A DNA stretch of 64,000 nt from contig MARA01000074.1 of NCBI GenBank assembly GCA_001792895.1, positions 1 through 64,000 on the forward strand, written 5' to 3'. The DNA is from Lentinus brumalis. Lineage: Eukaryota; Basidiomycota; Agaricomycetes; Polyporales; Polyporaceae. The notes below the pieces were generated by a model. It saw nothing but the letters and a program-made list of their open reading frames with translations, made no database searches and was not told the DNA's origin. Shown piece by piece: positions 43,712-59,666 of the stretch (positions are counted from its first letter, which is position 1; the number at the start of each line of letters is the position of its first letter). The translations under genes were made by a program, and so were the position numbers.

Positions 43712-45501
43712 ATGCCCAAGAGAAAACACGCGTGCGATTGCGACGAGCTGTGCCACGGCGTGCTCACGGATCTGCCTGCCGCTGAGTACAAGAAGCACAA
43801 GCGGTACCGCGTCTCCACGCTTGTCAATGCGGTAAAACGATTCTTTCCAGGCCCAGGAGCGCGTCGAGGAGTGTCACAGGAGGCAGGACCAAGCACGCGT
43901 GGCCGTGCGCCCACATCAGCACCCGACAATGTGAGTACCACCTCAATTGCGCATGCTATATGCGCCCATCGCTGACGCTCTCTGCAGCCTAAAGGCAACT
44001 CCGGTTCTGGCAGCGCTGCTGGCTCTGGTCGCGAGCGGTCAGAGGGACCCATGGCTCCCTCGCGCTCTGAAACACCGCAGTCTGTGCACGGCATGGATAT
44101 CAATGATCCCCTGCCCTTCCACAACGAAGAGCCGCTGGAAGAAGAGGATCAGGATCAGGAACCCGACCCCGGAGATGATCCGCTTCCCGAGGAGGGAGAG
44201 GAGCAGGAGCCCGACCCCGGAGAGGACCCTCCAGACCCCGATTACGGCCGCCATGAGCAGACTGGGGCGCCGCGCAAGGCCAAGCTGCCCATGCTCAAGC
44301 GAGCACAAGAGTACGTCGCGTGCATCCGGAAGGCAACACACAGGAAGGCGGGCATGTCCCGCAAGCGCATCAAGGCCATGAAGAAGCCGCCGACGTCCGT
44401 CGTTGATCTGGACGACGACCCGACTCTCCGCCTGTCCCTACGCCAGTTCATCGCAAATGCCCAATCCGAGGCTGCATACGAGGTGAATCGTCAGGCATGC
44501 ATGGAAGAGCACCCCGAACGCGAGCTGCCAACGCTCAAGGTCCTCAAGAAGATGGTCGAGGAGCTCACCGGGGTCGCCGCGATCAAACACGACATGTGCG
44601 AGAAGTCGTGTCTCGCCTATGTGGGACCGCACGCAAAGCTCACGCACTGCCCGTTGTGCAAGGAACGTACACCCCGCTACCACGAGATCGATGGCAAGAA
44701 CGTCCCATGGAGGACGTACGACACGTACCCTTTCGGTCCCCAGGCTCAAGCCCTCTTTCGGTCACCCGAGAGCGCGGAGCGCATGCACCACCGTCGCAAG
44801 GCCACGGCAGACTTCGAGGAGAAGGTGGCGGCTGGACTCAAGCCGGATGTTCTAGGCGACACATACTTCTCGCAAGACTTTCGCGAAGCTGTAGATCGTG
44901 GCGACATTCTGGACGACGACCTTGTGCTCATGTTCTCGATCGACGGGGCGCAGCTTTATGAGTCTAAGCAGTCTGATTGCTGGGTGTATATCTGGATTCT
45001 GTTCGACTTGTCGCTGAAGCATCGCTATCAGAAACATTATGTCCTCCCTGGTGGTATAATCCCTGGGCCCAACAAACCCAAGGACATCGACTCCTTTCTA
45101 CTCCCTGGCCTCATGCACATCTCCGCGCTGCAGAAGAAGGGTTTGAAGGTCTGGGATGCCGCTGACAATCGCACCTTCATTTCATGCCCAATCGTCCTCT
45201 GCGCGTGTGCCGACTGCATCGCTATGGCCTACATCAATGGACTGGTCGGCCACACTGGTGCCCACGGCTGTAGGCTCTGGTGTCCTCTGCGCAGCCGCCA
45301 TCAGCCCGGGTGTGGTATCTACTACCCGGCCATGCTCAAGCCGAACGACGCCAAATGTGGATCTGACGGCGACGACTTCCTTCCGCGCGCCCCAGTGCCG
45401 ACACGAGAACAACGCGGACAATCCTACCAAGATGCGCTCGACCTTGTGCTGCGCTCGGACAAGCAGGGAGATTATGAGAAGAGCCATCGCGGGACTGGTG
45501 T
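43712..45501 (+). pseudogene. CACTA (Tnp2-type) transposase, N-terminal half, cut by the KDZ element
   Basis: Exon 1 (43,712-43,930) encodes a Cys-rich start (CDCDELCHGVLTDL, then EYKKHKRYR), typical of fungal Tnp2-type transposases. Exon 2 (from 43,988) has an acidic Pro/Asp/Glu-rich linker. It continues with the cysteine knuckle CEKSCLAYVGPHAKLTHCPLC and the core FSIDGAQLYESKQSDCWVYI, then LKHRYQKHYVLPGGIIPGPN and CACADCIAMAYINGLVGHTG. These are standard features of EnSpm/CACTA transposases, including the aspartate of the IDGAQL motif. The frame is broken at 45,501 by the 12.7-kb insertion and resumes at 58,204. It could not give full-length enzyme unless the insertion excised. Confidence 0.92.
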
Positions 45502-45590
45502 CACCATCTGTTGTACCCGTTTTATAAAACGAACCGTTAAATAGTCCAGCATCTTTTACAAAACGAACCGGTAGTTAGACAATATAATAC
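45502..45590 (+). repeat. KDZ left terminal inverted repeat with two TTTTAYAAAACGAACC boxes
   Basis: It starts CACCATCTGTTGTA and carries the 16-mer box at 45,520-45,535 (TTTTATAAAACGAACC) and at 45,554-45,569 (TTTTACAAAACGAACC), then ends ATATAATAC. The right end has the same layout in reverse. The 180 bp from here to the transposase stop (45,591-45,773) hold no other feature. Confidence 0.92.
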
Positions 45591-45773
45591 AGGCCCGGAG
45601 GAAGGTCCGTAGCCTCTTCCGGAGCATTGCCTCGGCTTCTCGGCTCCTGCCCAATGAGGTATGTCCTTCCGCAAGGCTTGTAGCGGTCAGATATCTATGT
45701 TTTAAGCGGTGGCCATCCATCCGGGAGATCAAATAAATGAATATATTGCTCCTGCGGAATCTCTGACCACAAA

Positions 45774-48700
45774 CTAGGGGTCCTCATCAGCTAATGGCCC
45801 CTCCACCATTCGTCGATACACTGCTGCATCGTTGTCCTCCTCCTGTTCGCCCTCCATGCCCTCCTCACCCTCTGCCACCTCCACCTCCTCCACCTGCAGG
45901 GTGACCTTGTTCTGGAAGCGCCGCCTGATCTTGCGCGGCACGTAACCGCTGACCGGCGCCCATTCCTTCCCCAGCTCCAAACCAGCATCCTTGGCCAGCG
46001 GCAGCCAGATCTGTCGGAACGAGCCGCGCAGCTGCCGACGAATAGCAGCCTGCTTGTAGGCATAAGCTGTGAGCCCTTCCTGCAGCGTCTCGTCGACCTC
46101 AGGACGCTTGCCAATGCGGCTCCTCCACTCCTCCTCCTGGAATGCTAGAAAGGCGAGAACGCGTCGCATCTCCTCGGGAAGAAGGCGTATTTCCTCCATC
46201 CACCTGCGTACACGAGCTCGTAGCTGCGTCCACTCAATCCGCAGGGACTCTGTGAAGCCGCCCTCATCGCTGTCTGCCCCTCGCCAGATCCAGGACATCG
46301 TCCTGTATCCCTCTGCAGGTCCCGGCCTCTTCTGCCTGCGCGCTCGCTCCGCCACAGCATCGGGGTCGTCGTCTTGCACCGAGCGGATGTCGTTGTCGGT
46401 GAGGACCTGGAACTCCCTCTCCCAGAGCCCCGGGCCGATGAGCGCCAGCTTCGCACGGCGTGCACGACGGTATTTCTCCGCAGCGCGCCGCACTCGTACA
46501 CCCTGGTTGTCGGTGTCGGTGCGGGATCGTGTGCTGGGGCCTTGATAGCGCACATGGAGCTTCTTCAGTGTCCAGAGACGGTGTTCGGCGTGTAGCTGAT
46601 TGCGCAGGTCTTGTAGAGCATCGCGACACTGCGCATCTCGTAGGCGGGCCTCGATTGATTGGATGTTTGCAGGGCAGGTCGCCGCGCGGTTCCTGCTGTC
46701 GATCTGGGAGGGGAGCCCAAGGCGTGTGGCCTCAATCTCCTGAGTGTCGACACGAGCTGCATCTTCCTGAGCCAGGAGAGCGAGAACCCCAGGGGTGAAG
46801 TTCGCCTGATGGGCACGAAACTTCTGCACGCGATGGCGGAAGGATGTGCGCAGCTCCAAGAGCTGTGGTAGTTTGCTCTCGTCGTCTTGTGCCCTGGTAG
46901 CTTCCAGCTGTACGCGTGACCTGTGTAGCAGTCAGTCACAGCTCTACATTCGCGCTGAATAAATTACTCACTGGACCTCCTCGAGCTCGAGTGCCATAGT
47001 GACAAATCCAAGCTCGCTCAGGCTGTCCTTGGCGACGTGACCTGGCTCTGCGCTCCGCGTCGTCTCCTCCTTGGCAATTGCTTGCTTAGTCTGCGCCTCC
47101 GAGGGTCCTGTAGCAGCGTGAGGAATGCCACATGGAAAAAAACAGCAAGTAGTGGTTCGTACCTGTCTTAACGGAGACATAGGGGTCTACGAGGGTCATG
47201 TCGGCCTCCCATGTGGCCACCTGACGCTCCCACTCGTCGGTATTTTCCTTACGCAAGCTTGTGGTCAACTGCTTGAACGCAGCCCCTTGAGCGGCTGCCA
47301 TGCTCCTAGCGTGGAGGTACCGCCGTCGCATAAGCTCGGCTATGGATATGTTAGCATGTGCTGACGATACAGATTGCAAGAGAACGACAACATACCGAGG
47401 CCGATGATCTTCGTCCAGTTGGCATGACCCCACACTTCCTCAAGATAGCCCTGTCGCCCGCCCGGTCCCATCTGCTTGGTGCTGTTGGCCGCTGACTGAG
47501 ATCCCCACCATACACGCTCTACCCCCTCCCCATCGGTGCGCGCGGCGCCAGGAATGTAGTTGAGGGAGTACTTCGAGTGCTCCTTGCGCTCGTGACTGTG
47601 CCAGTGGAGCTTGGGAATGGCGTACTTGATGCTGCCGGTTGGAAGCGGGATTTGCATGTGCGTAGGGAACTTGGCAATGCGGTCGAGCAAGCCTTTTGAC
47701 CACTGGCATGCTATGTCGTAGGAGATGAGCTTGCGAACGCGCAGATGTCGGAGCATTGCTGAGACGAAGATGAAGTCCATGTTGATCCACCTGGTAGCGT
47801 GATTAGAGACCGCACAACCAGAGGGTTATTGTCGAACTCACTTTTCACCAAGCTGTGTATCTCCTACGCCATTCGCGAGCATAAACTCGTGCCGCGAGCA
47901 GACGGCCGCCCCTACCCCAGACGCAGCGTACCCCTTGGCATACTTCATGTTCGCCTTGGTCATCGCTGCAAACCCAGAACACGTTGACACCTGGCACGTG
48001 TGATTGGTCAGTTCAAGGGTGAAGACCGCCAATCCCATGAGAGACGCACGTCTTTCTGTGTACCATAGCCGGTAAGCATCTCCTCATAAGGATCGTCCTC
48101 GACGAAGTATCCCCAGCCGGCACCGAGGATAGGATCCTTCTGCTTGCTTGAGACGTCTCGTCGCTTGAGGCGGAAGCACGCGTCCAGAGCCACGCATAGC
48201 ATGTAAAGATATCTAAAGATGTGTGGTAAGGAGCCAGATCGCGCGAAACCAAGCAAAGCTACATACTGCAGGTCTTCAGAGACGTCTTCCCAGTTTGGTG
48301 GAAGGTTGATGTCGGGGTGAGGGCATGCGGGGCATTGAACGGCGAGCTCACCCTGCTTGGTGCCTGCGATACCAGTCGGATCGTGCGCACGCCCAGCGCG
48401 TTTGAGACGCTTCAGATATCTCCACTGCGCGACGACGCGCATGAACGATTTGTAGCGGTCTTGAATCACCTTCGTTCCGCTGTTGTCGGTAAGTCGCTCC
48501 AACGACTCGTAGTAGTCGTACATCGAGACCTTGCCCTGGACGCTTTGAATGTGGTAGTGCTCCAATAGACCAAACGTATAGACCGTGCCGGGCTCGGTGA
48601 TTGTCGCGGGGAAGAAGTCGCGGCGCAGCAGTTGCTCGTATGGAGTACCGGCCGTACCTGCCTGATCGCACCCGCAGTAGCGGATGCTCGCGTTGTGGTG

Positions 48701-49554
48701 GCCGTTGACGTCGATGATGCAGAAATCGTCCGGCGCCGCGCTTGGATTGGAACATTGAGAACCGTCGGGGTGCCCAAGCTGGACGATGAGGCCGATCTCT
48801 TTGAGTGAGGTGACCTCGAAGTACTTCCCATTCCACCTCTGCTGAGACTTAGTACACAAGCCGTAGCAGAGGTATAACGAGGAGCGCACCTGCAGCCGAT
48901 GACAGACCAGGCGTCGATGCCGCTCCTTCACGCATTCCTCGCACTCCAGATGGCCGGGGTTGCATGAAGTACACCGTATGGTCGCGGGGCGCGCGTTGGA
49001 CTGGTCGCGGCAAGATAGACAGCGGTCAAATGGACGGAAGTCAGCCCTTCCATCCCGCCGCACCAGCTCGTCCAGGACGCAATCAGCCATCGGGAGCCAC
49101 GTCTTCATAGGCTCGTCCTGGAAAAGGTTAGTGATGACCGGCTTCAAAGTAGCTTTGAAAAACGTACCGAGTTCAAATAGCGCTTCGCTCGCCCTCCACT
49201 CAGGCCACCCTGGCGCGCGTCTTGATCTGCGGCGGGCGCGACGGAGTCGGTGCCGAGATTCACAATGTTGTCTGAATCTGTGCTGGGGATGGCATGTTCC
49301 GACTCCAAGTCGAAGGGCGTCTCAGGCCGAGGTGTTGCAGCTGGGCTCGGGCTTGGGACAGGGATTGTTTCGCTTCTCACCCGTCGCAGGTCGGCAGACA
49401 GCGTATCGACAGAGGAGGCTGGAGCTGTCTTGGGCAGGCGGGCAGGAACCGCAGGAGGGGGCGGTAGACAGAAGCCGAGGAGACCGAGAAGTCAGCGCAA
49501 GAGTCAAGGTCTGCTTCACGGAAGCGGCGCTTTCGCGCTCGGGAAGCCATCCAG
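45774..49554 (-). CDS. KDZ transposase with N-terminal CxC2-type cysteine cluster
   Basis: A likely start at 49,554 (MASRARKRRFREADLDSCAD) leads, through an unresolved join near 49,400-49,480, to exons ending at 45,774. Domains in order: a cysteine cluster (CLSCRDQSNARPATIRCTSC, then CEECVKERHRRLVCH, later CGCDQAG) of the CxC2 type, and the KDZ core (VALDACFRLKRRDVSSKQKD; CSGFAAMTKANMKYAKGYAA; NMDFIFVSAML). The likely catalytic sites are the Asp of SYDIACQWSKGL and the Glu in DGEGVERVWW. A long helical C-terminus follows (WRSRIGKRPEVDETLQEGLT), ending in an acidic tail. The enzyme would cut and move the element. The gene is head to head with the TET/JBP gene. No stop interrupts the exons I can follow. 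Confidence 0.92.
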
Positions 49555-49867
49555 AGGACTGAATAGAGGTAAAGTTTGACACTGACAGCTGGGCGACTCG
49601 CAGAGTCACGGCAACCACGTGACCGTGACGCGTCGCGGCGTACTTCACGCACCAGCTGAGAGCGCTTGTTGTTGGACCACACCCCGACCACCACATCCAT
49701 ACTCTCGCCCCGGAGGACATGGGTCGCTACGCTGCCATAGGTGAGCATACATTGTCAACGCCCCTCCTCGAGTCCTGTGGCATTCTATAAGCGGGGCCCG
49801 CCCTTGGGCCTCGGAGAACAGCCAGGACTTATCCAGGAGGGGTGGTTTCAGCTTGATTGGAGCGCGG
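49555..49867. promoter_or_regulatory. Shared divergent promoter of KDZ transposase and TET/JBP genes
   Basis: Only about 313 bp separate the two start codons, so both promoters must lie here. I do not see a clear TATA box. The short distance implies coordinated expression. Confidence 0.55.
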
Positions 49868-51671
49868 ATGAGTACTGACACGCGTATTCTACCGTATAGA
49901 CACATCCCCAACCGTGTTCGGCTTCCACAAGGTGCGTCCAGTGCCCGAAAACGCGTGCTCCGAGGCTCATCCCCGCCCCAGACGCGCGCCGGCGCCGCGT
50001 TCTCACCCTGGGATGCAGATGCAGGGGTGCCCCTGCATGCCCCATCCAGTCTCAACCTCGATGCGCTCTTCCGCGCGTCATTGAAGGAGAAAGCCGCCAT
50101 GATGCAGAACGGCGAGGGCGTTCATGTAGACGAGCCCGACCTTGGACACCTGGAAGAGGCAGAACACTCCCACGGTCCCACGCGCAGCGCGAAGTCATGC
50201 CCGACCCCGCCTCCTGCCCACCAGCCCCCGTCCTCCCCCTGCTCATCCCCTCTTTCGTCGCCGCCATCTTCTCCGATGCTTGCGTCCCCAATATTCGCCA
50301 CCGCCGAGCTACCTGCCCCCCTGCCCATCATTCTCGACGCCCCCGTAGTAGCTGCACCTGCGCCTCAACTGCGCTGCTCCGATGGACTCTCGAAGGCGGA
50401 GTTCCACAAGATGAAGAAGGTCCAGCGCAAGCGTGACCAACGCCGCGAGGAGCGGGAGAGGAAGCAGCGCGAGGCAGGCACCTCCTTGAAAGCGGCATGC
50501 CTGAAGCACCGAAGCGGCGGCGAGACGTTCGCCGCCAACTTTGCGCTGCGCCCGGAGAACGTGCATGTCGCCAGCACGGGTGTCATTGGCCGCGCGATCC
50601 GCGTTCTGCGGGACGTGCGCAAGGGTACGTCGCTCAAGAGTGCGAAACGGCTTGGGTTTGGATATGTCAAGTGGTCTGGCAAGTGCGTATATCGCGCTAC
50701 TGTCCCCGCATGCGCTCGCTCACCTGCGGATGCCCATAGAAACAACTGCTACATTGCCGACTGCCACGGCACCATCTTCACCACTCTGGTCGGCGAGGCG
50801 AAGGACGCGCAGTGGCCTGCGCTTATCAAGAGGGTGACGGAGAAGTTCGAGCGAGCACAGAGGCTGCTGGCCCAGCTTGAGGACGAGCCAGAGCATAGGC
50901 GGGGCAAGTATTTCGCCGTGCACACCGGACATTCAATCGGCTCTGGGCAACAGGTGCGTACACAGCAACCTCGTCCCCGCTCGCGACTCTTACGGCAACA
51001 TCAGCGGCCGGGAAATCTGCGCAACACCGTGAGGCGGCAGCAGATCATCGACGACCTCAAGCAAGACCCCGATGTTGTGCGCGTCGCCAACTTTGCGAGC
51101 GGTACGTCGTCTCGTATGGCTGTACGCTATGTCGGTGCCAACGCCACACGCAGGCGCACTCAGCAACTACGTTCCGAACGTCCACAAGGTGTACCAGGAT
51201 AATATGGAGGCTCTACTTGACTCCGATCCCTCGCTCAAGCGCAATTTCCCGAACAACGTGTTCTCCGCTGCGACCTTCAACCTCGGGCCACGCGTCGCAA
51301 CTCGTCCGCATCTGGATCACTTGAACTTCGCCTATGGCATGTGCGCCGTCCTCGCGCTAGGGAACTACGACTACAAGAAAGGAGGCCATATAATCCTGTG
51401 GGATGCGAAACTGATCATTGAGTTTCCCCCAGGTGCGACCATCCTGCTCCCCTCTGCAATCCTGCGACACTCGAATGTTTCAATCGCTCGCCATGAGACT
51501 CGCTACTCCTTTACCCAGTACACTGCGGGCGGGCTGTTCCGCTGGGTCCGCGCAGGATTCAGGACGCTCAGGTCATTGCGGGCAGCAGGGAGCGACTTAA
51601 GCAGTGAATATGAGGAGTGGAAGGATGGGTGGAGACTGTTCCCAAACGTTCGTGACATGTACGGCCACTGA
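49868..51671 (+). CDS. TET/JBP-family 2-oxoglutarate/Fe(II) dioxygenase
   Basis: Four exons (49868-50682, 50740-50953, 51005-51101, 51154-51671) join in phase to 547 residues. The N-terminal 150-200 residues are Pro/Ser-rich, then a Lys/Arg-rich helix (MKKVQRKRDQRREERERKQR) may bind DNA. The catalytic double-stranded beta-helix lies at about 410-500. It has the metal ligands His428 and Asp430 in RPHLDHLN and the distal His481 in ILRHSNVSI; Arg492 in ETRYSFTQY is expected to bind 2-oxoglutarate. The stretch KGGHIILWDAKLIIEFPPGA is characteristic of the basidiomycete TET/JBP group. Relatives oxidise 5-methylcytosine to 5-hydroxymethylcytosine and further. All key residues are present, so activity is likely. 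It shares a promoter region with the KDZ transposase. The ATG at 49,868 is the first in frame. Confidence 0.93.
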
Positions 51672-52123
51672 GCCAGCCTTTGGAGTCGTGTATCAGACAG
51701 CTATCTCCCTGAGGAATACAATGTTCTTGGCTGCCCATGCGCTCGTGCCCACTGAAATGTTGAATGACTGGAGTGAATTTATATGACAATCTGGCGAGCT
51801 GCATACCCCGTTGGGGTACCTGTTTGAGTCTGTGTCTACAGCCTCTGGGGTGCCTTCGACATCGGACAGGCAGACTCGTGTTGCGAAGTCATGCAGGCTC
51901 CCCGCCAAATTGTAAGACGCGTCTTAAAATGTCAGACGCGTCTTACGGCGCTAGACCCCGGCGTGCACAGTAAGACGCCTCTGTCTCTGACAGGAACCCG
52001 ACCTTCCAAGGTTCCACCTGCTTAGTCTATTACCTTCCTCCTCTCTCGCATTCTGTTGCGCTGTCACCGACCTTCATTCAAAGCCCTTCGCATCACTTGT
52101 TCTCAACTCTGTACTCTCGCGAG
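51672..52123. promoter_or_regulatory. Spacer with two AGACGCGTCT palindromes upstream of the small basic gene
   Basis: The palindrome TAAGACGCGTCTTA lies at 51,913-51,926, and AGACGCGTCT recurs at 51,934-51,943 followed by TAC. A half-site, GTAAGACGCC, follows near 51,970. Together the first two form a larger inverted repeat starting GTAAGACGCG and ending CGCGTCTTAC. Each core has two CpG sites. It lies 150-210 bp before the next start codon, so a regulatory role is plausible. Pyrimidine-rich sequence follows. Confidence 0.7.
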
Positions 52124-52845
52124 ATGAGCCAGTCCCAGACACCGACCGGTGAAGTGCAGACCCGCACGAAGGACCCCGTGAAGACAGCAAAGGCTCGGCT
52201 TTTGCGACAAGCTCGCAACAAACGCCACTACGAGAAGAAGAAAAGGTGTGTTGTACTACAAGTTCGTTGCTTACGGTGTACTTAGTAGTACTCTTTGTTG
52301 CAGGATGCGGGAATATCAGGCTCGACTACATGCATCGTACGAAGGCAGCAAGTCACGTAAGGGTCCTCCGGGCTCCGGAAGCGGCACAGCGGTGTAAGTT
52401 CCAAGCTATAACTACTCCGAACACTGGTGGACGGTATCTAATGCTATCGTGCCACCCATGCCCCAGGCTTCTCTCTCCCGTCACCCCTCCTGCAGGCTTG
52501 TCGGCGTTGGTACTGGCCCGAGTCGGTGAGCTGAACGCCCGGCTCGTTGCATGGGGGTACCAGGACGATCCTCGCGAGCACACCGTGCACCTGAAGTCCC
52601 AGATCAAGAAATATCGTCGTCGGGCACGCTGGCCGGACGTTTGGCTTGAGGATACCGGGAAATGGGTGATGGAGGGGGATGATATCGTTCGTGGATTAGA
52701 GGAGTTGATTGGCTCGGCCGCAATGGAGTTGCCCCACTCTCGTGTTGCACAACTCTGGCAGACTGTGGCCTCGACGGCCTTCAACGCGATGGGGATGATC
52801 GCTATTACTCAATTCAAGGTCGATGATGTTGAGGCCTCTCTGTAA
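52124..52845 (+). CDS. Small basic protein of the KDZ element, uncharacterised
   Basis: Three exons (52124-52245, 52304-52393, 52467-52845) join in phase to 196 residues. The N-terminus is a strongly basic helix (KTAKARLLRQARNKRHYEKK, then RMREYQARLHASYE) that resembles the basic region of a bZIP-like DNA-binding segment but without a leucine heptad. The C-terminal two thirds are globular with several Trp (YRRRARWPDVWLEDTGKWVM; SRVAQLWQTVASTAFNAMGM). I recognise no family. A DNA-binding accessory role within the element is an inference from the basic region only. Confidence 0.65.
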
Positions 52846-52989
52846 TGACCTCGCGCAGAGACACCAATGCCAAACTTTTCGCATGTTCAGATTGATGATA
52901 TATATCCATAGTATTGTGGAATATGTGAGCAGGGTATCGAGATAGCGTATGTGTACCACAGCAGCAGGACAAGTGTGGTACTTTACAGA

Positions 52990-53909
52990 CTACAGCGGCA
53001 ACTCCGACTCAAAAACTGGCACGCCCACCCTCCCCTTGCTCTCTGCATGCGTGAAGTACTGCTGCGCCTCCAAATAGCTATGGAAGGCCCGTACCTTCCG
53101 GCCTGGGTGCTTGCCAGCCATACTGAACGCGGTAATTCTATGCAGCGTCGGTGAGAAGGTTAATACAAAGGCGTATAGAGACTGCTTAACTTACTTGTCT
53201 GTATATACTCCTGGGGTATCACCGCGCACCACCGCGTACGCGCGGCCCTCAGACACGATGATGGTCGAGGTGGTCGTGGTGGGTAGCGAGCTAGTGGTTG
53301 TGCGAGGCGTGTCCACGGACTCGGCGACGGCACTCAGACGAGTGCGAACAGGGGATCGCGGCGTGGGGAGCGGCGTAGGGAGTGCCGCACCAGGCATGGT
53401 GGGCGATGGAGTAGCCGGAGCTTTCTGGATCGCCTTCGGGGTCGAGGGAGCACTCACATAAGTTGCCGATGACGTGGTAGAGGGAGTGGCGTGCAGCGAG
53501 GAGGAGGAAGCCGGGGGTATGCGGAGGTCTGTAGTAATCGCCGCGCGTGGCTCTGGAACCACCCATCGCTTCTTCTTCCAGCCAGGCCCATTCACAAACG
53601 CACGACGTGCAGCCTCCACGCCATCGAACCGTTTGAAGGTCGCTCCGCTGAACCCGGTCACGAGAGGATTGGTTAGGCCCCTGCGGTGTTGTGAGATCGT
53701 CGTATGGAAGGCGATACTATCGGTCGTTCGAAATGCACATACCAGCTCATTATTACCCCCACGCATCGCCCCACCCAGACCACATAAGCGTCCGCATCGT
53801 CGATGTCGCCGATGGGTACGATCTGCCCATACTCGTCGTATATCGGTGTTGCGCCGAGACTCAGAGCGAAGCGGTCGTACTCTTCACGTTGTTGTCGTGT
53901 TAAGGGCAT
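52990..53909 (-). CDS. Protein with two viroplasmin/RNase-H1-N-terminal-like modules
   Basis: Three exons (53909-53743, 53680-53195, 53137-52990) join in phase to 266 residues. The first module, about residues 41-85, reads AYVVWVGRCVGVIMSWGLTN, then VTGFSGATFKRFDGVEAARR and AF. This matches the pattern of the caulimovirus viroplasmin / RNase H1 N-terminal domain: a Y-V-V-x-G-R-x-x-G strand, a Trp after the first helix, G-F-S-G-A-x-x-K-x-F, then E-A-x-x-A-F. A second, weaker copy follows a Ser/Thr/Pro linker, at about 205-250 (AYAVVRGDTPGVYTDK, then RAFHSYLEAQQYF). In RNase H1 this fold binds RNA:DNA hybrids. No RNase H catalytic domain is present. Its place in a DNA transposon is unexpected. 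The family call rests on the motif pattern only. Confidence 0.7.
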
Positions 53910-54110
53910 TGGGCGACACCAGAGAGGTGCAGAACGGAGAGGAGGACGATAAGGACGCGACTCGGTCAAGCGAGCAGAGTGTGCGGAGGAGGAGTTGTGC
54001 AAAGAGGCGCCAAGTGTGGTCGCGGTCACCTGCCCTCGAACGCACAACTGGCGCCTAACCACGTCCAGCCATCTCCTCCTCGACGCCATTCGTCGTCACT
54101 ACCTGCCACC

Positions 54111-57100
54111 ATGTCCCTTTCGAACATCAATCTCGAAATCTCAGAGGTTCAACCCCAGCGCTCTCGAACCTCGGGCCCTACTCGGGACAATCGCAACGCG
54201 CACCGCCAAAGCAAGAAGAATGACACGGTCAACCCAGGCAAACGCGGTGCGAAGTCGACATTCCAAGGCATGCGGTGGGACTACCTAGTCGAAAACGTCG
54301 ACGCTCTCAGAGACTGCAAGTTCTCTCGAGTCCGGAAGGCGCATGCGACCTTCTGGCACAACTTTTTCGCGCGTTATTGGGCAAAGTTTAATTGGCAGCT
54401 CCCTCTCGACCGCGACCCTCGTCCTGAAGATGTCTGGAAGACCGACCAGGAGTGCACCGCTGAGGAGCTCAAGGTGAAGTCAGATGTCATTGCGCAAACA
54501 CAGGTGGTACGTCTTTGGATGAAATCGCTGCCAAGAACGCGACTAACTCAGACGCACACAGCAATTGAAAACCTCCATGCACTATCTCGTCAACTCGCGC
54601 ATCAGCAAGGAGTCCAATCCGTGGACGCTCATGCTGGCCTCACTCAAGCGACAAGCAACCTGTCCTTCGCCGCGCCAGCTGGCCCCGTGGCAGCTTTACA
54701 TGTCGTTGAAGGGTGACGAGATAGACGACATCTTCGCCTCCTGCTGGCCGCTTGCAGGTCTGGAGCCGAAGGATAGCCTGGCGTTCCGCGGCATTATTGC
54801 GCGCGAGCAGTTGGCCCTGGAATCAGACGAGTACAAGGAGTGGCTGAAGAGCGAATGCGTGCGCCGACACAAGGAGGATCTGGACAAGCACAGGCAGATG
54901 GGCACGGTACCCGAGGAGCTCACTGACGAGCAGTCGCGCGAATTGTGAGTCTATTATTCCTTCTGCAATGTGTGCAATACTGAATGCATTGTCAGTGCGC
55001 GTGCTGAGCTCGCCCTGGCTGTGCAACCACTTTTGGAGATCATCGCCGACCTCACCGGCTTCCATGTCTCCTTGATCTGTGGACTTGTGTTCCCAAGCGG
55101 TCCCCAGGAATTCCAGATAAAAGTGTGAGTACACGGCATCCTGTTGTCTCGCCCCTGTCCTGACGGCCTTGGCTCTTGTGTGCAGCATCAATGCGGGGAA
55201 AACCGACAGACCAATCCCGATGACATGGAACCAGCACGAAGGCGAACGGTTCCATAGCGACGTCATTGGTTCGTTCGTTCGCTTCCTTACCCACACCACT
55301 GGTATGTCATATCTCGTAGCGTTGATAGATTACATTGCTGATGTCTCTCTAGGCTTCAAGACTCGCATGGCCGCCCTGGGGACCGCGTCTGCGCCCGCTC
55401 AACAGCCTGCCAGTGACGCTAGCACATCGGCTACGCCGCTGGGAACCCCTTTGCTGTCCAATCTCGACCCCTCCCTCAGTACTGCGGCTGCCGCCGGACC
55501 TTCTAATACCAGCTCGAAGCGGGTCGCCGCGAAGGCTCGCCAAGGGAAGTCCAAGGGTCAGCGCAGCCGTTGACGTCGTGGAGGGGTTGCCGAGGAAACA
55601 TCGGAAGAGGAGTATGATGATGATGAGGAAGAGGAGGACGAGGATGATGTCCCGAGAGACCCATGGGACCTCGACGCGACGCCGTATAGTCGTCCCTCCC
55701 GCGCCCTCGGGGATGCCGACGATGGTGACGATGAGGAGGAGGCTGGGGACGGGAGTCAGGAGGTCCCTACTCCAGAAGAACTCGGCCTGAACGATGCAGT
55801 GAAGGAGGAGCTCGCTGCGCTCTCGCGCCAGGCGCGTCGCCGCTGACTGCTGTCCTTGTCCCGCATGTCGGAGTACGAGCTGCAGGCAGTCTGCATGCGA
55901 GCGCAGAATGCCGCAACTATGCGCCGCATTGATCAGGAGCATGGCATCTTCCCCAAGCCCAAGCCCAAGCCTCGCCCACGCCCTCGAACCGATGCCTCGG
56001 CGCCTCGTCGACAGTCTGCAAGGCTGAATGCTGCACAGGCGGCGCAGGACCCGACTCGCGTGCCCGACGACCCGCAAGGCCCGACTAGCACGCCCGACGA
56101 GCCGCAGGACCCGACTCGCACGCCCGACTCGCCGCAGGGCGCGACTCGCGTGCCCGACAACACGCAGAATGCGACTCGCACGCCCAGCGAGCCGCAGGAC
56201 CCGACTCGCACGCCCGACAACCCGCAGGGCGCGACTCGCGTGCCCGACAACACGCAGGATGCGACTCGCGTGCCCGACAACACGCAGGATGCGACTCGCA
56301 CGCCCAGCGAGCCGCAGGACCCGACTCGCACGCCCGACAACCCGCAGGGCGCGACTCGCGTGCCCGACAACACGCAGGATGCAACTCGCACGCCCAGCGA
56401 GCCGCAGGGCACGACTCGCACACCCAACGAGCCGCAGGACGCGACTCACATGCCCGACGACCCGCAGGACGCGACTCGCATGCCCGACGACCCGCAGGGC
56501 CCAACCCGCGTGCCCGACAACATGCAGGACGCGACTCGCACGCCCAACGACCCGCAGGACGCAACTCGCACCCCCAATGACCCGCAGGACCCGGCGCGCA
56601 TGCCCGACGGCCCGAAGGACGCGACTCACATGCCCGACGACCCGCAGCACCTGACTCACATCGACGAACAGGACCCAGCGCGCATGCCCGATGTCGTGCG
56701 GGACTTGACATGCACACCCGGTGTGGCGCAGGACGCGTCGCACGCCGCTGATGTCACACAGGACATCGAGCCCGTTGCTGGTGTCGGAGGTGAACCTAGT
56801 CAAGGACTCAGTCGTGGTCAGAAGCGTCCCCGCGACGTAGATGGCGTTGCTGTCCCCGAGTGTCCGGCTGTCGACGACTCGCAGTGGCCGACATGGCTGC
56901 GCGAGGCGTACGACTTCTTGATCGAGAAGGACTACGGTCCTATCTTCAAGCGTGCGGTGCAGTGGTGGGCCACGCTTGAGAGGGTATATGGGTTGGAGAG
57001 TGGGGTAAGTATCCCATGCTGCGTCTTGCATTTCATCGCTCATACATTCATGCAGAGAAAGGGCCTTGGCACTGCGGGTTGTCCAGAGGAAGTGGGGAAC

Positions 57101-57533
57101 TGGATGCGCCTCGACAGGCGCAAGCTGCAGAAGAATCCTGCGATCAAGGACATCGCAGCGTACGTCGATGGCTGGTGGATGTGGTGGGCGCAGCTGCAAC
57201 CAGCCTGGAGGCAGCGCGATCTCAAGGGGCGGCCCATCCTTGATGGCGTCGTCGCTGGTGGATGGGGCAAGAACCTCTGCCGCCCCGGAAATAATGGTGT
57301 CCTGCTGCTTCTGCTCAGTTTGATGTGGTGGAAGGAGGCTGCAGCAGATGTCGGTCAGTGGGATCTTGCAGTCCACGATGTAGGCTGGGTGATAGCGCAG
57401 ATGGCGCAGTGCTCAAGGTGCGCAAAGCTAGACGTCGGTTGATTGGAATACTGACGATATCTGTGGCAGGGACTCTTTACTGGCCGACGACACTGAGGAG
57501 GGTCCTCTTCAAAAGAAGAGCCGCAGTAAGTAG
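54111..57533 (+). pseudogene. Large accessory protein of the KDZ element, broken by two in-frame TGA codons
   Basis: The start is at 54,111. The N-terminal exons (54,111-54,503 or so, 54,562-54,945, then three more) encode a globular domain (GMRWDYLVENVDALRDCKFS; PLLEIIADLTGFHVSLICGL; NAGKTDRPIPMTWNQHEGER). The frame then meets TGA at 55,571-55,573, remains open through an acidic stretch (EEEYDDDEEEEDEDDVPRDP), meets TGA again near 55,843, and continues from about 55,856. There follow about 20 decapeptide repeats (ATRVPDNTQD type) and a C-terminal Trp-rich domain (WPTWLREAYDFLIEKDYGPI; DGWWMWWAQLQPAWRQRDLK; VHDVGWVIAQM), ending at 57,533. The uninterrupted frame on both sides of each stop suggests one gene with two nonsense changes, although two separate genes cannot be excluded. 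Both domains occur in many uncharacterised Agaricomycete proteins. Confidence 0.65.
56040..56680 (+). repeat. 30-bp coding repeat, about 20 copies
   Basis: Units of 30 bp such as CAGGATGCGACTCGCACGCC and variants encode decapeptides of the form P-Q-D-A-T-R-T-P-D-D / T-Q-D-A-T-R-V-P-D-N. Two alternating subtypes (ending PDN and PSE) form higher-order blocks. Because the unit is a multiple of three and lacks stops, other frames stay open as well. Confidence 0.9.
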
Positions 57534-58113
57534 ATGATGCTATGTATCTACTGTACTGGCACCGCTCTCGTATGTTTGTCAATACTGTAACTTCCATTTG
57601 ATTTGACTTTCCTTCTAACAACTTGGGTGATTGACTTGCATGACCTTGAAGTTACGGTAAGAAAAACTTGTAACGCGCGGTAAGACCACTTGTGACACAC
57701 AGTAATGCCCAGTAAGAACGACTTCTAGGTCGTGGACTCGCAGTAAGAACGACTTGTAGGTGGCGGACTTGCAGTAAGAACGCCTTGTAGGCCATAGTGA
57801 TAGTAAGGATGATTCAAAAGTTGTAAGCCAGCTTAGATCTACCAACTTTGTTACTCGTCCTTAGGTCTTATGAGTCACAGTTACTGCAGGTAAGTCCAAC
57901 TAGTAGGCAGCGCTGTTTGTTATGAGGATAAGTCCAGCACAGCCGCTGAAAACAAAGTGCCGAAGAGAACATACCAAATCTGGACAACATGCCTGTGGAA
58001 TATCCCCATCTGGGACGGCTGCAACATCCAGCCCGGGAGGTATCCCATATTGGGAACAAGCCGAGAAGCTGACGGAGGGTACCAGGGCAAGCTACGGATA
58101 TGGCCCGGAGGTC
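57534..58113. repeat. KDZ right subterminal region with degenerate CAGTAAGAACGACTTGTAGG repeats
   Basis: No gene. About 57,655-57,820 holds roughly six degenerate copies of a unit of about 32 bp beginning CAGTAAGAACGACTTGTAGG or a close variant. Such subterminal repeats are usual near the ends of large DNA transposons. I do not see a matching array at the left end, where the transposase gene comes to within 185 bp of the terminal repeat. Confidence 0.6.
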
Positions 58114-58203
58114 GTATTATAATATAGAACAACTGGTTCGTTTTGTAAAACATGTGCGAGCCTACGACCGGTTCGTTTTATAAAATAACTACAACAGCTG
58201 CTG
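58114..58203 (-). repeat. KDZ right terminal inverted repeat
   Basis: Reverse complement of the left end: boxes GGTTCGTTTTGTAAAA (58,135-58,150) and GGTTCGTTTTATAAAA (58,170-58,185), then TACAACAGCTGCTG at the edge. Box spacing is 35 bp here and 34 bp at the left end. Confidence 0.92.
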
Positions 58204-59666
58204 CCGGTGTGGGCAAGCCATCGGTTTTCAGCGGCCTCCCCGTGACGTTCAGCGTGCCGACCATGTTCCCCCCTGACGTGATGCATCATCTCGCCCTCAA
58301 TATTCCCGACATCATGATTGGACTGTTCACTGGGACGTTTCGCTGCGCAACCTCCGACAGCGTGCATGATTGGCCCTGGGCCGTCTTGTTCTCTGAGTGG
58401 ATGTGGGAGCAACACGGCGAACATGTTGCTTCTATGTCCCTGTCCCGGACCCTGCCTAGCTCGTTCGATCGAACTCCCAGGAACATCGCTGCCAAGATCA
58501 ACAGTGGTTACAAGGCCTGGGAGCATATGTATCATTTCTATGTCCTTCTGCCAGGTCTCCTCTATGCTATCATGGACAACGAGTTCTACGGCCACTACTG
58601 CAAGCTTGTCGCGGGTGCTCGTGCCGTGCTGCTTGTGGAATCCCCAGACGAGTTTCGCCCGCTTGCGCACAAGCTGCTCATCGAATTTGTCGAGGACTTC
58701 GAGAGGCTGTACTATCGCCGCCGGCTCGACCGCCTGCACTTCTGTCGTCACAGCATTCACCAGCTCCTCCACCTCATGCCAGAGACCTTCCTCCGCGGCC
58801 CGCTGTGGCTGATCTCACAATGGCCGATGGAGAACGCGATTGGAAATCTCACCCGTGAGATCGGCTCAGATTCGCTGCCCTATGCAAACTTCGCTGAGCG
58901 TGCCTTGCGGCGCTGCCAGGTTTGCGCACTTGTTGCCATGTTCCCAGCCCTTGGCCAGATCGAGAAGCTTCCCAAGGATGCCATCGAACTGGGCAACGAC
59001 TATGTTCTGCTCGCTTGGGGGAAGGCAGCGCGGGCAACAGAGCTGCCTCCAGACGAGGCTGCGGCCCTGGTGACGTACCTGCGAGGATGCAACATTGTGG
59101 TTCCACAGACCTGGAAGCCTGCAGCCTGGAAGTGGGCGCGTCTCCGGCTGCCCAACGGACAGATTGCTCGGACCGCCTTCGGGGAATGCAAGGGCGAGGC
59201 ACGCGGCAAGCCGGTGCATCGGTCGCGCATGGTAAAGGTAATGTATAGCATCATATTGTGTCAATGTATGCACTGACATTGTACACAGCTCCGCGGAGAC
59301 ACCTTTGCCGAAGTCAAGTACTTCTTTCGGCTGAAGACGAAGGACGCACATGGTGTCGAACGGACAGCCAGCCTTGCCATGGTTGCCGACTACACGCCTC
59401 CGGACCCCGCAATCTTGAGGAAAACATACGGTGTTCTCATGGTATGCCGTTATGAAGGCGGACATTCCCGCCGTGTCGTGGACGCTAAGGACATACTCAC
59501 TGTCATGGGTATGTGCTGGTTGCGCCCGAAACCTGTAGAGCTGTACCATCCGCGTGCTGCAGAACTCTACCATGACCGCTACTTCGTTGCTCAGAAGCTC
59601 GGGTTCGACATGATGTGGATCGGTCGCGTACAGGACCCAATTGTGGACGATGGCGCGGACGGCTGA
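58204..59666 (+). pseudogene. CACTA (Tnp2-type) transposase, C-terminal half
   Basis: It continues the frame of 43,712-45,501 directly after the KDZ insertion (GVGKPSVFSGLPVTFSVPTM). Family features follow: FPPDVMHHLALNIPDIMIGL, KAWEHMYHFYVLLPGLLYAI and HFCRHSIHQLLHLMPETFLR. A conserved glutamine/Trp-containing stretch comes next (GPLWLISQWPMENAIGNLTR). One intron (59,238-59,288) separates the last exon, which ends at 59,666. An open frame of 374 codons begins inside the KDZ end at 58,152, so a chimeric mRNA starting in the terminal repeat is conceivable, but it would lack the N-terminal catalytic half. Confidence 0.9.

What the first reader, a model, noticed from the sequence alone, without database searches (positions are those of the whole stretch)
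45502..58203. A 12.7-kb KDZ transposon that carries its own TET/JBP DNA dioxygenase plus four more genes
Inside one pair of terminal repeats lie a KDZ transposase with CxC2-type cysteines, a TET/JBP enzyme with all metal and cofactor residues, a small basic protein, a two-module viroplasmin-like protein and a large accessory protein. Linkage of KDZ transposases and TET/JBP genes in basidiomycetes is established knowledge. The full cargo set and exact ends are seen here. Inference: the oxygenase removes host CpG methylation from the element and so counters silencing, with the other proteins helping at the DNA.
Basis: partly seen in the sequence, partly recalled or inferred. Interest (0 to 1): 0.9.

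Follow-up and report, generated by a model that had tools for sequence, protein, structure and literature searches.

The report
Five-gene fungal transposon with TET oxygenase
This is a real 12.7-kb jumping DNA element of a mushroom-type fungus that carries its own DNA-oxidising enzyme and four other genes as a fixed set; elements with such an enzyme were already known, but the conserved gene set, its gene-free 2.3-kb relatives and a paired palindrome at the centre of both look new.

Summary
Window 45502-58203 is a DNA transposon of the KDZ (Kyakuja-like) kind: CA..TG ends, imperfect terminal inverted repeats, a 7-bp target duplication with one mismatch, inside a tnp2/Plavaka gene that reads in frame once the element and one duplicate are left out. 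The genome holds a second full-length element (C86, 12,555 bp, perfect 7-bp duplication, same five genes) and seven intact 2.27-kb relatives without these genes, all with perfect 7-bp duplications. The five genes occur in one order and orientation at five loci; between the two full elements dN/dS is 0.10-0.25. The oxygenase family folds like TET enzymes (best match CcTet) but has Asn where published Kyakuja enzymes have Gly/Ser. TET-bearing Kyakuja elements and the anti-silencing idea are already published (Kojima 2025); that function remains untested. I rate it a new variant of a known kind; the internal palindrome is the most novel part.

The parts
45502..58203 (.). whole element, 12,702 bp, termini CACC..GCTG (CA..TG)
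45495..45501 (.). left target duplication CTGGTGT
58204..58210 (.). right target duplication CCGGTGT (one mismatch)
45502..45536 (+). left terminal inverted repeat, core arm
   Evidence: I1
58169..58203 (-). right terminal inverted repeat, core arm
   Evidence: I1
45520..45578 (+). two direct copies of a motif like TTTTATAAAACGAACCG, 34 bp apart; candidate transposase sites
   Evidence: D5; binding is inference
58129..58185 (-). the same motif twice at the right end, 35 bp apart
   Evidence: D9
45774..49550 (-). KDZ transposase gene with CxC2 cluster, about eight exons (model tentative; start codon inferred from the C86 relative)
49868..51671 (+). TET/JBP oxygenase gene, exons 49868-50682, 50740-50953, 51005-51101, 51154-51671; 547 aa; all introns GT..AG
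   Evidence: for the model; for the family
51913..51945 (.). twin palindrome TAAGACGCGTCTTA / TCAGACGCGTCTTA, 19-bp register, at the middle of the element
52124..52845 (+). small basic protein gene, two or three exons (model tentative)
52990..53909 (-). viroplasmin-like gene (RNase H1 N-terminal domain), exons about 53909-53743, 53647-53191, 53155-52990; last exon read by eye
54111..57442 (+). large accessory gene with 30-bp tandem repeats at 56043-56661; two in-frame stops at 55571-55573 and 55844-55846 in this copy
43976..45501 (+). 5' part of the interrupted tnp2/Plavaka transposase frame
58211..59276 (+). 3' continuation of the interrupted transposase frame (no Pfam match of its own)

Best explanation
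The element is a TET-bearing KDZ (Kyakuja-like) cut-and-paste transposon, probably autonomous in ancestry. Shown by sequence: exact ends, a 7-bp duplication, insertion into a Plavaka gene, a second full-length element, a five-gene set kept in fixed order under purifying selection, and gene-free relatives with the same ends. Inferred: the KDZ/CxC2 transposase binds the doubled motif at each end and moves DNA between such ends, including the 2.27-kb elements. Inferred: the oxygenase oxidises 5-methylcytosine at the element and keeps its genes expressed or its ends accessible. Inferred: the small basic, viroplasmin-like and large proteins are accessory factors of transposition or expression. Inferred: the central twin palindrome is an internal cis-acting site, since besides the ends it is the only stretch found to be shared between gene-free and full elements.
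Against: No expression, binding, methylation or transposition data exist here. The window copy's large gene carries two stops and its duplication has a mismatch, so this copy may not be fully competent. TET-less clusters with KDZ and accessory genes exist, and 23 of 44 TET clusters show TET alone. CpG is not depleted. The whole 547-aa window oxygenase gave no Tet_JBP match at E<=5; the assignment rests on relatives and fold. The palindrome is absent from most TET loci looked at. Kyakuja placement rests on ends and duplication, not on a tree.
Confidence: 0.8

Rival explanations
1. The oxygenase serves transposition itself rather than anti-silencing: oxidised cytosines at ends or targets help excision, repair or target choice.
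For: The gene sits head to head with the transposase at the five full clusters; no CpG-decay trace in the elements. Passages of PMC8889193 report oxidised cytosines enriched in transposons of two mushrooms.
Against: Clusters with KDZ and accessory genes but no TET hit exist; TET enzymes are generally known for 5mC demethylation (recalled).
Confidence: 0.2
2. Most of the genes are passengers: only the transposase and ends matter, and the rest hitch-hikes.
For: Gene-free short elements have moved recently, so ends plus proteins supplied in trans are enough; which proteins is unknown.
Against: All five genes are kept in one order at five loci and show purifying selection between the two full elements.
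Confidence: 0.12
3. The twin palindrome is only a promoter element of the small basic gene (it contains ACGCGT, the fungal MCB box as recalled) and its presence in short elements is a relic of deletion.
For: It ends 178-179 bp before the presumed start codon of the small gene in both full elements (my arithmetic).
Against: In the seven short elements, in which no hit to the gene was found, the palindrome block has 2 of 33 variable columns against 308 of 980 in the rest of the centre; in six of the seven one of the two palindromes has ACATGT in place of ACGCGT yet stays palindromic.
Confidence: 0.35
4. The interval is a chance nest of unrelated insertions or an assembly artefact.
For: The window holds other transposon genes.
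Against: Second full element with its own ends, duplication and genes in the same order.
Confidence: 0.02

Closest known systems
TET+ Kyakuja DNA transposons (Kojima 2025, PMC12730594; abstract, passages, sections 18, 23, 34 and part 1 of section 24 seen)
   Same: KDZ transposase, TET/JBP gene inside the element, CA..TG termini, 7-bp duplications, Agaricomycete hosts
   Different: The two Laccaria families are described as having no terminal inverted repeats; here they are present. The words RNase H1, viroplasmin and accessory do not occur in its main text; it does mention extra genes for other superfamilies (alpha-kinase in IS3EU, a third protein in PHISTA). It gives Gly or Ser at the position where this family has Asn. 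Its supplement was not seen.
KDZ/TET gene pairs of Iyer et al. 2014 (PNAS; not held, known here only through citations and recall)
   Same: Linkage of TET/JBP and KDZ genes in basidiomycetes, CxC clusters
   Different: Could not be read, so I cannot say which neighbouring genes it lists.
KDZ1-KDZ3 of Cryptococcus (PMC12810828; passages)
   Same: Large KDZ elements that demonstrably insert
   Different: KDZ1: about 11 kb, 241-bp repeats, 8-bp duplications, CxC1 domain; no TET gene in the passages I saw
CcTet of Coprinopsis cinerea (PDB 7VPN, 7W5P, 8JKK; PMC11040006 passages)
   Same: Fold; similar spacing of the metal-binding residues
   Different: 13-14% identity; Asn in place of Gly331, Cys at the position counted as 337
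Internal activation sequence of phage Mu (recalled, no call)
   Same: An internal DNA site that acts together with the ends
   Different: Analogy only: position, palindromes and binding protein are unrelated or unknown here

Membership tests
KDZ transposon | KDZ catalytic domain (PF18758) | tested here: met
   E 3.7e-31 on one exon, over cut-off
KDZ transposon | CxC-type cysteine cluster | tested here: met
   CxC2 PF18803 E 3.3e-39
TET+ Kyakuja (Kojima 2025) | 7-bp target duplication | tested here: met
   8 of 9 copies examined are perfect, the window copy has 6 of 7 bases
TET+ Kyakuja (Kojima 2025) | CA..TG termini | tested here: met
   9 of 9 copies
TET+ Kyakuja (Kojima 2025) | no terminal inverted repeats (stated for two Laccaria families) | tested here: not met
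   35-nt arms 83% complementary; may not define the group
TET+ Kyakuja (Kojima 2025) | transposase falls in the Kyakuja clade of a tree | not tested
   no named reference transposases were fetched
TET/JBP dioxygenase | Tet_JBP profile (PF12851) | tested here: inconclusive
   window exon E 0.19, below cut-off, and no match of the whole protein at E<=5; 13 of 40 members of alignment A1 match at E<=1, best 9.5e-7; relative P0014 bears PF12851 in the database
TET/JBP dioxygenase | HxD...H...R active site | tested here: met
   invariant in 50 of 50; the roles of the residues are taken from PMC11040006 and recall
TET/JBP dioxygenase | TET fold | tested here: met
AG-type TET (Kojima 2025) | Gly or Ser at the position of CcTet Gly331 | tested here: not met
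   Asn invariant at His+5 in 50 of 50; PMC11040006 equates CcTet Gly331 (His326+5) with Asn1387 of human TET2
AG-type TET (Kojima 2025) | Asp at the position of CcTet Asp337 | tested here: inconclusive
   Cys invariant at His+11, by counting only, without superposing that residue
PE-type TET (Kojima 2025) | HxE motif | tested here: not met
   HxD in 50 of 50

The most novel reading that the evidence does not exclude
Kyakuja-type elements are multi-protein transposition machines with an internal recognition site: a twin palindrome at the middle, bound by an element-encoded accessory protein, is needed in cis together with the ends, which is why gene-free 2.3-kb elements keep it; and the element's oxygenase belongs to a further, unclassified type of mobile TET with a TET2-like Asn in the base pocket.
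Probability: 0.3. Interest if true: 0.8.

Novelty: new variant of a known kind. Interest (0 to 1): 0.58.

Why it matters
A transposon that edits the host's silencing mark would be an arms-race device; a defined five-gene unit with exact ends, a second full-length relative and recently moved mini-elements makes that testable. The internal palindrome, if a cis site, would add a rule for how these KDZ elements are put together and would help to recognise mini-elements in other genomes. The oxygenase family, with a different base-pocket residue from the studied CcTet, may be a useful further 5mC oxidase.

Tried and rejected
Independent insertion of the oxygenase: rejected, no boundaries seen and the same neighbours at other loci. 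Simple internal deletion as the origin of the short elements: not supported, since the one short element compared (C115) shares only about 100 bp at each end and the palindrome block with the two full elements. Strong CpG decay as a sign of methylation: not found. Sequence search of solved structures with the oxygenase (one exon, whole protein, 40-member profile, one relative) gave no TET hit at E<=1 for the exon and E<=10 for the rest; only the fold comparison did. Homologues of the small basic protein: none at E<=0.01 among 391 candidates; the first part of the large protein found one (full-length relatives fell outside the length limits). A second structure job was not used. Literature on a viroplasmin-like gene in KDZ elements: the searches showed none; a Pleurotus Helitron with a captured viroplasmin gene turned up (PMC4289320, passages). 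PMC7641404 (passages) reports CxC2 before all intact KDZ elements of Pleurotus; PMC8290104 (passages) says that KDZ end motifs were characterised in a supplement, which I did not see. Iyer 2014 is not held.

Full report
What is there. The window lies in a 53.4-Mb, 136-contig genome (window = C109:1-64000) that is not named; the named relatives of its oxygenase that I saw are fungi of the mushroom class. At 45502-58203 there is one DNA transposon. Its ends are inverted repeats: 35-nt arms at 83% complementarity, with a motif like TTTTATAAAACGAACCG present twice in direct order at each end. The termini are CA..TG. The 7 bases outside each end are CTGGTGT and CCGGTGT. The element interrupts a tnp2-type (PF02992) Plavaka-like gene. 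A protein of the joined flanks, less one duplicate, matches 12 other places in the genome, each in an open frame across the junction.

Other elements with the same ends. A search with the first 159 bases gave 21 matches. They include a second full-length element at C86:29410-41964 (12,555 bp, duplication CTTCGTC on both sides) and seven intact elements of 2,255-2,270 bp, all seven with perfect 7-bp duplications. No hit to any of the five genes lies inside these seven. The one compared with the full elements (C115) shares with them only about 100 bp at each end and a central 34-bp stretch; it has 628-bp inverted arms at 88% identity. The seven are 83-100% alike. Two of them, on C115 and C83, show no substitution in 2,268 aligned bases (one is a base longer) yet have different duplications, so they moved recently. 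Partial or rearranged ones lie on C60, C69 and C85.

The genes. KDZ transposase (minus strand) with KDZ and CxC2 domains. TET/JBP oxygenase, four exons, 547 aa, all introns GT..AG. Small basic protein. Viroplasmin-like protein (PF01693 in its second module). Large accessory protein with a 30-bp tandem repeat. In the window copy the large gene has in-frame stops at 55571-55573 and 55844-55846; the C86 frame is open there. Introns that skip both stops can be drawn, but they would remove coding sequence that is conserved with C86. My models of the other four genes have no internal stop; no transcript was available.

The set is conserved. The two full elements are 65% identical in a global alignment. 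dN/dS between them is 0.10 for KDZ, 0.14 for TET, 0.24 for the small basic, 0.19 for the viroplasmin-like and 0.25 for the large gene, with dS near saturation. Searching the genome with one piece of each protein and joining hits within 10 kb gave 95 clusters, 44 of them with a TET hit (counted). Of these 44: five have all five genes in one order and relative orientation (C109, C86, C105, C115, C35); three have four of five, without a viroplasmin-like hit (C1, C60, C122); C39 has TET, small basic and large; seven have KDZ, TET and large, in all seven with TET on the KDZ strand and the large gene opposite; C45 has TET and large; four have KDZ and TET only; 23 have TET alone. Seven further clusters have KDZ with accessory genes but no TET hit: C13 and two on C79 (small basic, with large in two of the three), and four with the viroplasmin-like gene only. 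So the accessory genes seem to go with KDZ more widely than TET does. All these counts are lower bounds.

The twin palindrome. Between the oxygenase and the small gene, at 51913-51945, lie two 14-bp palindromes of the form TAAGACNNGTCTTA in a 19-bp register (window copy: one mismatch in the second). The pattern of the pair with up to three mismatches occurs at 14 places in the genome; the reversed pattern at 0. The 14 are: both full elements, the C105 five-gene cluster, the seven intact short elements, three partial short ones (C60, C69, C85) and C82:275399 (three mismatches), about 0.5 kb from a small-basic-protein hit. The exact 14-mer alone occurs at 20 places, control 0: 14 in these elements or the related C1, C39, C60 and C122 clusters, two only near KDZ hits (C35:782333, C104:611004), and four that I could not assign (C35:793104, C35:819437, C46:54645, C88:80862). 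Among the 30 fetched TET loci (L037-L066), 8 have a copy with at most one mismatch: the pair in C109, C86 and C105, a degenerate pair in C35, one perfect copy in C1, C39, C60 and C122; C115, C126 and the rest have none. It is therefore a feature of part of the family. It sits at 50.6%, 50.2% and about 48% of the length of the window, C86 and C115 short elements (my arithmetic). In the alignment of the seven short elements, 8 of 220 end columns and 2 of 33 palindrome-block columns vary, against 308 of 980 in the rest of the centre; a stretch just downstream is equally conserved. A Fisher test of the two palindromes (2 of 28) against the rest of the centre gave p 0.0027, without correction for relatedness. 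Between the two full elements it is one of few well-conserved stretches outside my coding models, apart from the ends. I read this as an internal cis site; a promoter role is the main rival.

What it means. The published picture (PMC12730594) already has TET-bearing Kyakuja elements with CA..TG ends and 7-bp duplications and proposes that the enzyme counters silencing; that paper also states that the function is not experimentally validated. What this work adds is the conserved five-gene unit, the presence of terminal repeats, the mobile gene-free relatives, the different pocket residue and the palindrome. The searches that did not show the gene set or palindrome in print are those, limited to the held library and to listings, abstracts and passages; Iyer 2014 and all supplements were not read.

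Methylation. Two places match the C5-methyltransferase family over cut-off, so the host can probably methylate cytosine. Neither full element is depleted in CpG (1.01, as in the left flank, itself partly transposon) and the CpG excess among transitions in the short elements is slight. This neither proves nor excludes protection by the oxygenase.

Noticed in passing
window 51913-51945: Twin palindrome at the middle of the element, shared with gene-free elements; 14 places in the genome with up to 3 mismatches, control 0
   Followed up: yes
window 55571-55573 and 55844-55846: In-frame stops in the large accessory gene of this copy; the frame is open in the C86 element
   Followed up: partly
G000 C115:999646-1001913 and C83:51234-53502 (L029, L030): Two short elements without a substitution in 2,268 aligned bases but with different target duplications: recent movement
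   Followed up: yes
G000 C13:1004105-1018970, C79:4678-6364, C79:26653-33017: KDZ with small basic (and in two of three cases large) gene hits but no TET hit
   Followed up: partly
G000 C59:529128, C62:512901, C64:464543, C115:5: Viroplasmin-like gene hits near KDZ hits without TET
   Followed up: no
G000 C1:2633424, C60:3002499, C122:17968, C39:16399: Hit sets with identical scores for a related cluster on four contigs; recent copies or duplicated assembly segments
   Followed up: no
G000 C62, C77, C104 (two), C118, C125, C59: A second arrangement in which TET lies on the KDZ strand and the large gene opposite
   Followed up: partly
G000 C35:793104, C35:819437, C46:54645, C88:80862: Exact palindrome 14-mers not assigned to any element
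   Followed up: no
L035 (C60:1805600-1812000) and L036 (C69:80800-90000): Rearranged or interrupted short elements that keep the palindrome pair
   Followed up: partly
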